DNA from: Bimastos eiseni
Lineage: Eukaryota > Annelida > Clitellata > Crassiclitellata > Lumbricidae
DNA length: 64,000 bases
Direction of reading: 5' to 3'
Assembly: GCA_959347315.1 (NCBI GenBank)
Contig: OY365806.1
Span: 31,746,818-31,810,817 of the forward strand
Below the pieces are notes generated by a model. It did not search any database and was not told the DNA's origin. It worked only from the letters and a program-made list of their open reading frames with translations. Numbering within the stretch: the stretch's first letter is position 1; every line of letters begins with the position of its first letter. A program made the translations under genes and the position numbers. Positions 462-64,000 of this stretch are shown here, one piece after another.

Positions 462-8182
<7,721 letters not shown>

Positions 8183-8550: not shown

Positions 8551-9539
8551 CATGGTAAACGCTCAAATCCAATCGGCCAACAAGGGATGAGCGACGGCAG
8601 GGAAAACAAAGGGGGATCTGAGGTGGGACCCGTAGGAGAACATTTCAAGAACGAATCATGAAAGGAAAGAATGGATTAAAAGTAACCTTTAAAAGTAACC
8701 CGAAATCAGATATGTCGGCCACCATTTGTACATGCGGAATATTAATCATTACACAAATTTATTCTCAAAATCGCCCAACACTTATGCACGGACTACTGCT
8801 AAGCATTCATAAACAGTAAAAATGATTAACAGATTTATGGAATGATTTTGTGTGTTTGAACATCAATGAAGTGAACGTTTCTGGATATACATTTCTGTAA
8901 AGGCTCTATATGACAATAACAGTATTATAGCCTACAGGACGCGTCTGATTGCTTGTTTCTATAATAGTGTGCTATAACACGCCCATTATCTCAATTAAAT
9001 CTGTTGTACCAAACTACAAATAATCTTCAATCCGCTGTGGCCATTTTAAACGACGATCTGAAATTGGTTCCCAGCCACTTTGTAATGTAATGTAACGAAG
9101 TGCACCTTGCACGCTAGAGAAATCCATTTGCAGATTTGGTGATGAGCTATATCAGTTGGCTTTCTTAGCCTTTCTATCCATGACTGTGGACATGCTACCT
9201 ATCCTTAGCAACCTATTCAAAAAAATATCTACAGCTGAAGAGGGCGGGAAAATGGTGACACTGTGGCGGACAGGCCACAAGGCTTGAATGAATGATTTAT
9301 TTAAATAATCGGCTCGCCATAGTGTTATTTTACGTCTATTTTTTTTACAGTGTTGCGCATAGGAAGGAAGACCGATCGGCGGTTTTTAATTGAATGCATA
9401 GCTTGCAGACGCATGAATTGGCTTGAGTATAGCCTGACATGCGGTGCATCGCTATATATGTGAAGCAGTGGTTCGTACTGCTTCATACGTAGAGTGGTTC
9501 TCGTACCGCTCCAGGGATCGTTGAGTGTTGCCATATAAA
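8551..9539 (+). other. Intergenic, no gene seen
   Basis: AT-rich unique-looking sequence. I find no splice-bounded exon or recognisable element. Confidence 0.5.
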
Positions 9540-12130
9540 TACGACCTCTAGTGACAGCCGCTCTCGCGGTCAGGCTGGTGCTGCTTTTCGCTGATCTGGT
9601 GGGGTGGGCCCCTCTGCCGTCGATCGCAAGACGGACCGTGCCCTGATCGTAAGAGTCAACAGGCTGACAGAGAAAGTCCGATCGTGAGAAATAAATGAAT
9701 AAATGACAGTTCTGTTCGGAAATACGGGGAAGATGGTGACCCCGTTGGTGGCCGTGAGTGATACAGACTGAGTGAGTCCCAGAAGGGACCGACGCATATA
9801 TCGAGAGAGGCCTCGGCGGCCGACAGAGAGATAGACTGGGAAAAATCCCCGACCGTGCAGACCGTGGGAGTTCTGGTGGCCGAGAAATATTCTGGTTGGC
9901 TACCTAGATCGGTCATAGTTACTCCTCGCGAATACCAGCAGGTTGTCGGATACGTGACCCCGTCGGTGGTCGGGAGAAATAGAGATCGGGTAAAGCCCCG
10001 AGCAACCGAACGCTACATCGAGACAGATTATGGCGACTGTTGAGACAATTTTACGGGAAGAATTCCCCAGTGTACACGTTGGTTAAAAGACGGGGAGGGC
10101 GGCCCCGTGAAGCCGTTGGAAACAGACTGAGAGCTACCGGAGAAGCCGTTGACAAATACTGGAAAACATGAATACATTCGATAAATACGGGGAGGGTGAC
10201 CCCATTGTTGCGTTAGATACAGGGAAAGTTCCCTTTGGTGCCGAAAACCTGATCAATTGTGGGCGTCTCCGCATATTCTTTCGATTTACGGTTTTCCGTA
10301 AATATCTATGCTTGGCTACCTAACGGTGGTCATACTTACTCCTCTCGTTTACCAGCAATCTGTTGAATTGCGTGTCTGATCGCAATGTCTTAGGTCGCGG
10401 TTTCCCCGCGTATCTTTACTTGAGTTACTAAACGTAATATCTGTACTTGCGGTGTCCCCGCAGTATGTCTTCTTGATTGTCTTACGGTCTTTCGGTAAAT
10501 ATTCTTACTGGCTACCTATGTTGGTCACAGTTACTCCTCTCGGTTTTTCCAGAAATCTTTTCACTTGTGTGTCTAGTTGCAATATCTTGGCTCGCGGTTT
10601 CCCCGCGAGGCATCTACTAATTTCTTCTTGTAGATCTAACTACATAATCTCTTTTCGAGGACTTCCTCGAAAGATCTGCCAGTGGTTCGTTCCAGTGTAT
10701 AAAAGACAGAGTACAATTGCTTCAGAGAAAGTGATTATAATAATACAGGTCTGTGTGAAACATAGAGGTAACGTGGTGACACTTACCTCAGTTGCCTGTG
10801 AGAGAATCGAGTCTGAGAAACGAGAGTTGGTGCATTACCGTTGGTCAGATCTCTAGGTGACGAATACAAATATGTTCCTACGATGGGATGAATAAATGCA
10901 GTCAATGAGAGTTACAGACATGTGAGAGTCTGGGTGATCGGATATTAAAGTATATGACAGATGCAAGCCGGCCGAGAAATATACTTGTTGGCTACCTAGT
11001 TCGGTCATAGATACTCCTCCCGTTTTCCCCAGGTTGTCGGAGACATGAAAAGTCGGGTGGCCGCAAGAGATACAAGCCGAGTAGATTCCCGCAGTAGCAG
11101 CCGTACAAACCGAGAGAGCTGCCGGTGGAGAGTTGGCATATACGGGGAAAGTTCCCCATTGAATTCGTTCGATAGAAATATCGGGGAAATTCCCGAAGGA
11201 CCCGCTGGAATTACACGTGGAGGATGAACACGTTAGAAGAGCACGTGACAAACAAGAGGAAACACTGGTGCCGATTGATACCTTCAGGTTACTAGTCAAG
11301 TAACTCTTCTTGATGGCTTTATAGTCGTTCGATAGATATTCTTGTTTGTTACCTATGTTGGTCATAGTTACTCCTCCCGGTTTTCCGGGTGTCAGAATAT
11401 ATTACGGTGTTGGCGGACAACTGCCAACGCAGATAACGGTCAATCGTGTGCATGATAACTTATGCGTGTGAGGCCGGTATGCCACACACGGAAATGGGCC
11501 AAGAGGCCGACGTAAAAGTCTGGGCAGTCGGAAACCCAGGGTAAAGATAGTAAGCAGACCAAGAATTGATCGATGCGTAAACATTACTGTTGGCTACCTA
11601 CGTTGATCATAGATACTCCTCCCGTTTTCCCGAAGAGTATCTATTTGCGTGTCTGATCGAAGTGATCGATACGAGTACGTTTGGGTAATCGGGTACCCAG
11701 GTGAATACATGGTTGTTTGTCGTCACACACAGTTCTGAGAGCTGACTAAAGTGCGAGGTCGGGACCCCTCGTGCGTAGGTCGGATCGAAGATCTGTGTGC
11801 AGATAGCGAAGGTTATAGACAGAAGACCTTCACTATCAGAGTCCGTGAATACCATGGCAGTGTCATTTTTATCGAAGCAGAATATATCAGTGTTGGTGGG
11901 TAACTGCTAACACAGAGGACGGGAACTTAGTCAGTCAAATGTGCATGACAAAATATACGTGTGCGGCCGTTTATACCATACACGGAAATAGATCGAGAGA
12001 TACGTGTTGAGCAGAAGACGTGATAGCTAAGTGTCTAGCATGATATGACGAAGAGCTGTGAGACTGGTGTGTCTAGGACGACAGAGGTTAGAGAGTTGGG
12101 GACAGTAATGTCTAAGAGTATAAGACGTTG
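9540..12130 (+). repeat. Dense array of short perfect hairpins with diverged repeat modules
   Basis: Higher GC and CpG than the flanks, no convincing coding frame. Short perfect stems recur roughly every 40-80 bp: TTTACGG-tttt-CCGTAAA (10285), CTCGCGG-tttcc-CCGCGAG (10592), TTTCGAGG-actt-CCTCGAAA (10654), GGGGAA-ag-TTCCCC (11144), CCCGG-tttt-CCGGG (11374), GTCCC-agaa-GGGAC (9777). A diverged motif near TTGGCTACCTA, then TTGGTCATAGTTACTCCTC, occurs about six times (near 9895, 10315, 10510, 10990, 11350, 11595). A second pair of modules starts at 11405 and 11887. Possibly a structured non-coding repeat or the non-coding part of an unknown mobile element. Confidence 0.75.
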
Positions 12131-12707
12131 GATTTAGCTACCGATAATTGTATAGGCCGAAATGGCTTATGGACTTGTTTCAAATATGTCTGAACCTCGT
12201 AACTTAAGAGAACGTTTGGTGTCCCTAAATGGCGATAGTTTCAGAGTCACAAGATGCTGAACGGTACGACATCAGGTAGAGGAAGACGAGGCTAGTAGCT
12301 TGGAAGGTATGCAAGGCGAGGAAGACTCCTGCCGGTATGATTATGAACCCTGTTTTGAGTACGGCCATCCTCAGAACGTTGCCCATCCGGCGACCGCGGA
12401 ATAGGCAGAGTCAGACCTCGTTACTAATTCGAGCCGTGTTACCTTTCTTGGAGAAGAAACCCATCCCTAATCTTGCCTGGTGATAGTGAACATCCTGGTA
12501 GATATAGAGAGTAACCGTTTGGCATTGAGATTTGGTAAGAAAGTGACTCGGGCGACTCCAGGCGCGTCAGCGAGCTGGGGTCGACACCGTCCTTTAGCGC
12601 TAGGCAGGCGCTCGGGCGGCAGAACGCCACAACACAATAATTATGCTTTCTATGCCTATATACTTCTAACCTTTCTAGTTTTCCGTCTAGACTTGTTATA
12701 TATAGCG

Positions 12708-12775
12708 AACGGCAAAGGTTTCGAATGAATAGGTGTAAAAGTGTGCAAATACATAAACGGACAGACACACACAGA
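12708..12775 (+). repeat. Direct repeat, left copy (retroelement 3'-end-like)
   Basis: About 65 bp matching 13715-13785 in the same orientation (GTTTCGARTGAATAG, GTGCAAA, GGACA). The right copy runs into GACA repeats and a TTTATTTATATAGAT tail as in some RTE-type LINE 3' ends (family guess from memory). Confidence 0.7.
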
Positions 12776-12801
12776 GAATCTAGATATACAACTTTCAACT
12801 C

Positions 12802-13438
12802 TAGCCTACTTTGTACGCATCAGTGTCTATACACAATTCAGCTTTTCTTCCTCTTCCTATTCCTTAGTGTTATTCTTACTCACCTTCCTCCCATCTTCTT
12901 CTTCTTCTTCTTCTTCTGATTCCTGGCACCATCTCTTCCCACCACTTCATTACGATTCATTCACCTTTCCTAGATCTAATACCTAGCTCCTCCTCATCTC
13001 TAATTCCTCTTCTCTTGCTCCGTCTTCTCCTATTTCTATTCACTCCCTTTTGTTCTCACTCACCTTTTCCCAACTTTCTTCCTTCTTCCTACTTCACAGT
13101 TCACACCCTATCCTAACCGCTTCCTCCTCCCATCCCCACCCTCCTTTTCACACTCCTCACCCTCTTCTCCACTTCAGCGCGCACTCATTGTCACACTTCT
13201 TCTTTCCCTTACACCATAATCCTTGCCTACTACTTCCTCCTCCTCCTCCTCTTCCTCCTCAACAATCCTGCGTTCCCTTTCCTAACCCTCTTCATCATCC
13301 TAACCCCTCTTCTTCCCCGATATAGCCCGAACTCTTTGCGTTTCCACGAACTTGCCTTTTGTCCCACGAAAGCTCTTTCGAATGAGTAGCTGATAAACGG
13401 AATTGTGTATAGACACTGATGCGTACCACGTAGGCTAG
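12802..13438 (+). mobile_element. Pyrimidine-rich segment bounded by a 39-bp inverted repeat
   Basis: Left arm 12802-12840 and right arm 13400-13438 are nearly perfect inverted copies sharing GTACGCATCAGTGTCTATAC. Between them is about 500 bp almost entirely of C and T. No target duplication was recognised, so a transposon is only one explanation. Confidence 0.7.
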
Positions 13439-13714
13439 CTACACTGTGCAAACGATTGCCAACTCTAGACCTGCTAGTGCTACAGGTATTGTTCCAAGCC
13501 GTCCATTCGTAAAAGAAATAGGTGTGGCAGAGAGAAATCACGTGCACAAGTACAGCATTCGTAGGTCGGGGATCAACGTGTGTCGCTCATGTCGACTGAA
13601 AAGGAAACTTTCCCTGGGAGTCCTAACTCCTGAAACAGGTTTTTGGCCCTGGAGATGAGGAAGATGGCGTGGCGGGATTTATGAACCCCTCGACTTTCAG
13701 GTGTTCCCCGAGCC

Positions 13715-13825
13715 AACGGTGAAGGTTTCGAGTGAATAGCTCCAAAACTGTGCAAACGCATAACCGGACAAGGACACACAGACAGACAGACAGAGAGAGA
13801 GAATTGTCTCTTTATTTATATAGAT
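13715..13825 (+). mobile_element. Right direct-repeat copy with LINE-like 3' tail
   Basis: Repeats 12708-12775, then (GACA)n, (GA)n and a TTTATTTATATAGAT end. A probable 3' terminus of an RTE-like retrotransposon or its derived SINE. Confidence 0.5.
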
Positions 13826-14112: not shown

Positions 14113-14115
<3 letters not shown>

Positions 14116-14862
14116 ATTATTACCTGCCACAATAGCCTGCACTAGCCTCTATTATTCTTTGGTCCATCCCTATTTGGCATACTGCAATTTAGTTTGGGCG
14201 TCTAACTATCCCTCGAGATTAAATAGGCTCATCTCCCTTCAAAACAGAGCGTTTAGAGTTATCTGCAAATGCTCTGTACCACACACATGTACACCTAATT
14301 TACACTATTCTCAACCTCTTATCTTGAATGTTAATCAAATAACTCTAACGCAAACTAATGCGTTTATATACAAATTTTTAAACAACCAATTACCTGTGGC
14401 TTATGCCAACTACTTAACGCCCGTCCAATCAACCAACCCGTATAACCTTCGAGATTTTAATAACTATAGACCGACCGACGCACGCACAAACACGCGCAAA
14501 TTTTCAATCAGATGTGGTGGAACAATGGCCTGGAATCGTCTTCCACCAGACATACGTACTTTTACTCAAATCAACGCATTCAAACACAAACTTCGCGAAT
14601 AGTTCTTTCTAAATCCAACGTAACGTGTTTTTCTGTTCACTCATACCTGTTAATCGTAGTTAACTAGTTAAGTATTGCGTACTCTTTTTACAAGATGTAT
14701 CAAATAATTGCCATCCTCTTAACAATTTAACTTGAAAGTAAAGGTGCCCCTGCTAGCAGGACCTCGGTCCCTTTAGGGTTCTTCCTTATTGCTGTCTGTC
14801 AATCTACTAGTATTTCAAACTTGCATTTTCTATTCATGATCGTCAGTACTCAATAAAAAATC
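14113..14862 (+). mobile_element. LINE 3' fragment: RT C-terminal domain
   Basis: From about 14119 the frame is open to TAG at 14600. It reads TSLYYSLVHPYLAYCNLVWA, LISLQNRAFRVIC, FLNNQLPVAYANY, ARTNTRKFSIRCGGTMAWNR and LPPDIRTF..FKHKLRE. These are the C-terminal landmarks of a non-LTR retrotransposon RT (HPYL-YCN-VWA, NTRKFSIR-G--WN-LP). It is 5'-truncated at a (TA)n tract, ends with AATAAA near 14851 and runs into (TA)n from 14876. The last about 150 codons are intact, so insertion may be fairly recent. Confidence 0.9.

Positions 14863-27520: not shown

Positions 27521-64000
<36,480 letters not shown>

What the first reader, a model, noticed from the sequence alone, without database searches (positions are those of the whole stretch)
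9540..12130. Dense array of small perfect hairpins, with substitutions that keep the stems
Seen: dozens of short inverted repeats (5-8 bp stems, 2-10 nt loops, often TTTT/TTTC/GAAA-like) at tight spacing with no coding frame. Two modules can be compared directly. GTGTTGGC-GGACAACT-GCCAACGC at 11411 and GTGTTGGT-GGGTAACT-GCTAACAC at 11890 differ at three stem positions, and every change keeps a pair or wobble (T-G to T-A, G-C to G-T, C-G to T-G). A second stem a few tens of bases later (GTGTGAGGC/GCCACACAC against GTGTGCGGC/CCATACAC) keeps most pairs too. A further diverged motif (TTGGCTACCTA .. GTCATAGTTACTCCTC) recurs about six times. Inference: the structure, not the sequence, is maintained or regenerated, as in a structured RNA, a replication or packaging region, or an unknown element.
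Basis: partly seen in the sequence, partly recalled or inferred. Interest (0 to 1): 0.75.

Follow-up and report, generated by a model that had tools for sequence, protein, structure and literature searches.

The report
Hairpin-rich noncoding locus with 28S-rRNA-like motifs
A 3-kb noncoding stretch of an animal genome is packed with small hairpins and carries six diverged copies of a short motif that matches, in the antisense direction, one of the most conserved parts of ribosomal RNA; what it does is not known.

Summary
9540-12130 is the most structured 2.6-kb stretch of the window (mean folding z -0.85/-0.81 on the two strands, rest -0.12) and has about twice the short perfect hairpins of shuffled sequence (31 vs 16.5+/-3.9). 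The strongest structure lies left of the given start: 9240-9345 and 9395-9515, z about -4.9 on the + strand. The other seven homologous module pairs tested show no consistent pair-keeping beyond chance.

New: the motif that recurs six times is, on the minus strand, a 44-nt relative of eukaryotic 28S rRNA around helices 69-71, the R2 retrotransposon target (82% identity, E 3e-6). Its two arms (10 + 14 nt) match 28S at 136 of 144 positions over six copies and are better kept between copies than their flanks (0.89 vs 0.49-0.63). All six are antisense to 28S on the + strand.

Best reading: an internally duplicated, hairpin-rich noncoding locus with constrained 28S-related motifs. Transcription and function are untested.

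The parts
9240..9345 (+). long branched hairpin, left of the reported limits; the strongest fold found
   Evidence: MFE -35.8, z -4.96, 0 of 200 shuffles as good; chosen after seeing the profile
9395..9515 (+). three stable hairpins in a row
   Evidence: MFE -51.0, z -4.88, 0 of 200 shuffles as good; chosen after seeing the profile
9540..12130 (+). hairpin-rich direct-repeat region as reported
9896..9925 (+). 28S-antisense motif, copy 1
   Evidence: arms 10/10 and 14/14 equal to the 28S complement
10312..10342 (+). 28S-antisense motif, copy 2 (7-nt middle, as long as in 28S)
   Evidence: 10/10 and 13/14
10508..10537 (+). 28S-antisense motif, copy 3
   Evidence: 9/10 and 13/14
10988..11017 (+). 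28S-antisense motif, copy 4
   Evidence: 10/10 and 13/14
11345..11374 (+). 28S-antisense motif, copy 5
   Evidence: 8/10 and 14/14
11590..11619 (+). 28S-antisense motif, copy 6
   Evidence: 10/10 and 12/14
10286..10410 (+). module repeated at 10482-10607
   Evidence: 80% identity; alifold z -3.5 on +
10482..10607 (+). second copy of the module at 10286-10410
11393..11510 (+). module C, copy 1, with kept stems at 11407-11430 and 11465-11490
   Evidence: 11393-11545 folds at z -3.48
11878..12005 (+). module C, copy 2, with stems at 11890-11913 and 11958-11984
11600..11845 (+). further structured stretch between the two C modules
   Evidence: MFE -88.5, z -3.45

Best explanation
A noncoding locus of about 2.9 kb grew by repeated internal duplication of modules a few hundred nucleotides long. 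Its sequence folds into many small local hairpins, best on the + strand at 9240-9515 and in module C. Six places hold a roughly 35-nt motif related to the helix 69-71 region of 28S rRNA, and the two arms of this motif have been kept while the flanks diverged. The mechanism that I think most likely is a + strand transcript, a string of hairpins, that presents these arms as antisense sites able to pair with 28S rRNA or its precursor: a multi-site rRNA-binding (guide- or sponge-like) noncoding RNA. Shown: the repeats, the excess structure, the 28S relationship, the orientation, the better preservation of the arms. Inferred: transcription, pairing in the cell, purpose. Not excluded: that the arms are kept for another reason, such as protein binding to the DNA.
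For: Six direct copies confined to the locus. 28S match of the six-copy consensus: 44 columns, 82%, E 3e-6 against eight fetched loci; L003 verified as LSU_rRNA_eukarya. Arms equal the 28S complement at 136 of 144 positions. Mean pairwise identity of arms 0.89, left flank 0.49, right 0.63, middle 0.62; in four colinear pairs 85 of 96 core against 253 of 361 flank positions. Duplexes with 28S -41.9 to -52.9 kcal/mol against about -22 for shuffled sites; helix 69-71 is the best target for each of six sites in both loci tried. + strand structure; module C keeps 21 of 21 pairs on +, z -6.1 on + and -3.4 on -.
Against: No transcript evidence. The arms are not more open than the rest of the predicted fold (14-mers 0.44 against 0.43; 10-mers 0.30). 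Over 9540-12130 the two strands are about equally structured, as DNA palindromes would be. Box C/D or H/ACA features were looked for only by eye and not seen. Seven of eight module pairs show no consistent stem preservation. The energy result restates the sequence match. The constraint rests on paralogs in one locus, with a poorly aligned left flank.
Confidence: 0.32

Rival explanations
1. A decaying repeat that once captured a 44-nt scrap of 28S rDNA and was duplicated locally. It has no function now; the hairpins and the better-kept arms are chance and uneven decay.
For: Similarity to 28S reaches beyond the arms (CGGGAAAACGG...), as homology would; seven of eight module pairs break stems as chance would; no known RNA family.
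Against: Arms 0.89 against flanks 0.49-0.63 and middle 0.62; excess of structure; kept stems of module C.
Confidence: 0.28
2. The hairpins are made by mutation: template switching at replication turns imperfect palindromes into perfect ones, so stems seem to co-vary without selection.
For: Small perfect stems; about equal structure on both strands in 9540-12130; two two-sided changes in module C are compatible with it.
Against: + strand favoured in module C (21 of 21 against 8 of 9 and 18 of 21 on -) and at 9240-9515; it does not explain the 28S motif.
Confidence: 0.17
3. The DNA, not an RNA, matters: the motif is the R2 target region with the cleavage-site centre altered, so the locus is a noncoding part of a mobile element, or a landing or decoy site, tied to R2-type retrotransposition.
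For: The motif spans the R2 target as printed in PMC12180492 (passage); the changed centre lies at the R2 site.
Against: No R2 protein was recognised in the window (by eye, no profile search for it); no flanking repeats of 12 nt or more between 8900-9700 and 11950-12750; contiguous upstream-then-downstream 28S order does not fit R2 concatemers (inference).
Confidence: 0.15
4. The 28S match is a coincidence and the locus is a plain diverged repeat.
For: I recognised the match by eye after looking at many motifs, so some choice was involved.
Against: Both arms at the right spacing: 5 matches with up to 3 mismatches, none in 100 shuffles of the window (the pattern was taken from the copies themselves). 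E 3e-6 against 28S loci.
Confidence: 0.04

Closest known systems
rRNA-derived repeats such as SINE28 (name from recall and from the search listing of PMC6337102; paper not read)
   Same: a piece of 28S inside a noncoding repeat
   Different: no other copy in the 64 kb; internal modules rather than dispersed units; only 44 nt of 28S; dense hairpins
snoRNAs (box C/D, box H/ACA) that guide modification of 28S helices 69-71 (recalled)
   Same: antisense elements of 10-14 nt to this part of 28S
   Different: no box C/D or H/ACA layout seen by eye; no Rfam match; a bipartite motif six times in one locus
Nucleolar long noncoding RNA LoNA (PMC5928123; start of abstract in the listing)
   Same: a long noncoding RNA thought to act on rRNA production, with a snoRNA-like part
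   Different: LoNA acts by holding nucleolin and fibrillarin; no such features were tested here; transcription of this locus is unknown
R2 retrotransposon target in 28S rDNA (PMC12180492, passages)
   Same: the motif is a relative of this target
   Different: outside rDNA, centre changed, six copies, no R2 element recognised

Membership tests
Eukaryotic LSU rRNA (Rfam RF02543) | covariance-model match of the locus | tested here: not met
   no match at the gathering score in the window, nor for 9000-13000 at E<=5 (its single hit is another family at 12818-12865, E 2.3)
Eukaryotic LSU rRNA (Rfam RF02543) | sequence homology over the helix 67-71 stretch | tested here: met
   44 columns, 82%, E 3e-6 for the six-copy consensus
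Structured RNA with conserved fold | changes across copies keep pairs more than chance | tested here: inconclusive
   met for module C, not for the other seven pairs
snoRNA | box C/D or box H/ACA elements placed next to the antisense element | tested here: inconclusive
   not seen by eye in the motif copies; no Rfam match; no dedicated snoRNA search was run
Dispersed repeat or SINE | many copies in the genome | not testable with these tools
   own-genome search did not complete; no copy elsewhere in the 64 kb
Protein-coding gene | an open frame with homologs | tested here: not met
   one ORF (170 aa, the longest start-to-stop ORF) searched: none of 33 candidates at E<=1

The most novel reading that the evidence does not exclude
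A large structured animal noncoding RNA that carries six bipartite antisense sites for helices 69-71 of 28S rRNA and binds rRNA or pre-rRNA by pairing: a multi-site rRNA-binding RNA unlike snoRNAs.
Probability: 0.18. Interest if true: 0.8.

Novelty: new variant of a known kind. Interest (0 to 1): 0.5.

Why it matters
If the arms are kept because they pair with 28S, this would be an animal RNA that meets one of the ribosome's most conserved interfaces through many sites, outside the snoRNA families. If they are kept as DNA, it would show that the R2 target region has a second life outside rDNA. If neither, it is a clear example of how an rDNA scrap and small palindromes can look like a structured RNA.

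Tried and rejected
Coding: stop-to-stop frames on both strands were listed. The minus frame over the motif is open in some copies but stops or shifts break it in others, and its variable sites are not mainly third positions (read by eye). One ORF was searched and has no homolog. Rejected.

Known RNA family: no match at gathering scores in the window and no relevant match at E<=5 in 9000-13000. tRNA: none.

Transposon ends: between 8900-9700 and 11950-12750 no shared exact word of 12, one inverted word of 11.

A TATA box at 9534 as the left end was considered and dropped, because structure and a repeat copy lie left of it.

Exposure of the arms as a sign of guiding: not supported.

Other rRNA pieces in the locus: none convincing among the eight fetched loci; the hits outside the motif have E 0.52. 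One hit elsewhere in the window (41008-41112, E 6e-4) lies in an AT-rich repeat and was not followed.

Relatives elsewhere: no exact pattern match in viral contigs or genome contigs, no blastn match among plasmids or phages. These collections are of viruses and prokaryotes, so this says little. The protein collection does hold animal-like pieces from metagenomes, so relatives may exist there; no metagenome scan was allowed.

Literature: seven keyword searches of open papers; none of the listed titles and abstract starts describes a hairpin array with repeated 28S helix 69-71 antisense motifs. Only passages of one paper (PMC12180492) were opened.

Full report
Setting. The window is nuclear DNA of an animal: 61588-61962 encodes part of APC (PDB APC chain 3nmz, E 2e-29; Pfam APC_rep, E 7e-12; 76 relatives at E<=0.001, the best 87% identical over 80% of the query). 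The finding lies downstream of what I take by eye for the last coding exon of a channel gene (about 8026-8182); no tool confirmed that gene.

Is there an excess of hairpins? Yes, about twofold for perfect stems of five or more pairs (31 against 16.5 +/- 3.9). Folding of 100-nt windows against 40 dinucleotide shuffles (summarised after dropping windows that overlap a hand-typed list of tandem arrays, 1099 of 1272 kept) gives mean z -0.85 (+) and -0.81 (-) in 9540-12130, against -0.12 and -0.12 outside 9240-12130. Of 303 sliding 2.6-kb segments the two lowest start at 9401 and 9201 on both strands; the lowest on + that avoids the locus is -0.78 at 55401. 11393-11545 and 11600-11845 reach about -3.5. 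These four pieces were chosen after seeing the profile, so their z values are not free of choice.

Is structure kept? The locus is built of direct repeats, on one strand and with no copy elsewhere in the window. For eight homologous module pairs I took confident stems of one copy and counted the pairs kept in the other, against random reassignment of the same changes among equal bases (32 tests in all, two strands and two references each). The other seven pairs do not exceed chance in a consistent way (28 tests, lowest P 0.04). Column-shuffled RNAalifold agrees: z -6.1 (+) and -3.4 (-) for module C, -3.5 (+) and -1.4 (-) for 10280-10415 / 10476-10612, and between -1.4 and +1.2 for the five other sets.

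The recurring motif. Read on the minus strand the six copies give a consensus of the form CGGGAAAACGGGAGGAGTAACTATGACC-n-AGGTAGCCAA. I recognised this as the helix 67-71 region of 28S rRNA. To check it, eight 28S-bearing contigs were fetched with an exact 40-nt word, and L003 was confirmed as LSU_rRNA_eukarya (1779 bits); the other seven were not. The six-copy consensus aligns over 44 columns at 82% with E 3e-6 (L003 and L004; 77-82%, E up to 2e-4, for the other six). The R2 target as printed in PMC12180492 (one passage of its section 21) is the same sequence. The arms match the 28S complement at 57 of 60 (10-mer) and 79 of 84 (14-mer) positions. Between copies the arms have 0.89 mean identity; the 26 columns to the left 0.49, the 15 to the right 0.63, the 6 in the middle 0.62. 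The arms were defined by their match to 28S, not by conservation among copies, but the two are not wholly independent. The middle is not free: on + it reads A-n-n-T-Y-G in the five copies with a 6-nt middle and is 7 nt long in the sixth; it differs from 28S, and by eye the helix 69 stem cannot form.

Which strand? The six motifs are antisense to 28S on +, and module C and 9240-9515 are better structured on +. Over 9540-12130 as a whole the strands are about equal, so the + strand transcript is an inference.

Could they pair with 28S? Predicted duplexes are -41.9 to -52.9 kcal/mol with L003 and -43.2 to -52.9 with L004, against means of -21 to -24 (sd 3.1-3.9) for 100 shuffles of each site. Each site has its best target at helix 69-71 among 304 (L003) and 794 (L004) windows. 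The 12 strongest of 12,742 overlapping windows of the 64 kb all lie in these six sites; the next is 29741 at -42.7. This restates the sequence match in energy terms; two of the eight loci were used. Against a guide role: the arms are not more open than the rest of the predicted fold.

What it is. I commit to an internally duplicated, hairpin-rich noncoding locus with constrained, 28S-related motifs, most likely acting as an RNA that pairs with rRNA (0.32). A decaying rDNA-derived repeat (0.28), a mutational origin of the hairpins (0.17) and an element tied to the R2 target (0.15) remain open. The better preservation of the arms is the firmest sign of function. It rests on paralogs within one locus, and the left flank aligns poorly, which lowers its identity; in four colinear pairs the contrast is smaller but goes the same way (85 of 96 core positions against 253 of 361 flank positions).

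Novelty. No family matched, and seven keyword searches of open papers listed nothing alike. I rate it a new variant of a known kind, rRNA-related noncoding sequence, until relatives and transcripts are seen.

Noticed in passing
9246-9264, 9727-9745, 10767-10785: A short GGGAARATGGTGAC-like sequence recurs in three hairpins whose stems differ; the first copy lies left of the reported limits.
   Followed up: partly
43647-43726, 43945-44006, 46666-46862, 47979-48181, 50564-50657, 62042-62101: A 16-bp tandem unit (CTTCGGACTATCGAAC and its reverse complement) appears as several separate arrays in both orientations.
   Followed up: no
3081-4142 and 32630-33186: Uninterrupted microsatellites: TCTG x 265 and TG x 278, both 100% matching.
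   Followed up: no
7604-7901: A 24-bp tandem array whose unit is itself palindrome-rich (ATCATTCTGATCATCAGTTAATTG), with folding z about -1.5 on both strands.
   Followed up: no
12704-12775 / 13711-13782 and 12801-12847 / 13392-13438: A direct and an inverted repeat pair just right of the locus, perhaps a separate mobile element.
   Followed up: no
14114-14599: An open frame that looks by eye like a piece of a LINE reverse transcriptase; no Pfam match at E<=0.01.
   Followed up: partly
L001-L008: Eight contigs titled as bacterial assemblies contain a eukaryotic 28S word; L003 is LSU_rRNA_eukarya, so these records probably carry eukaryotic contamination.
   Followed up: partly
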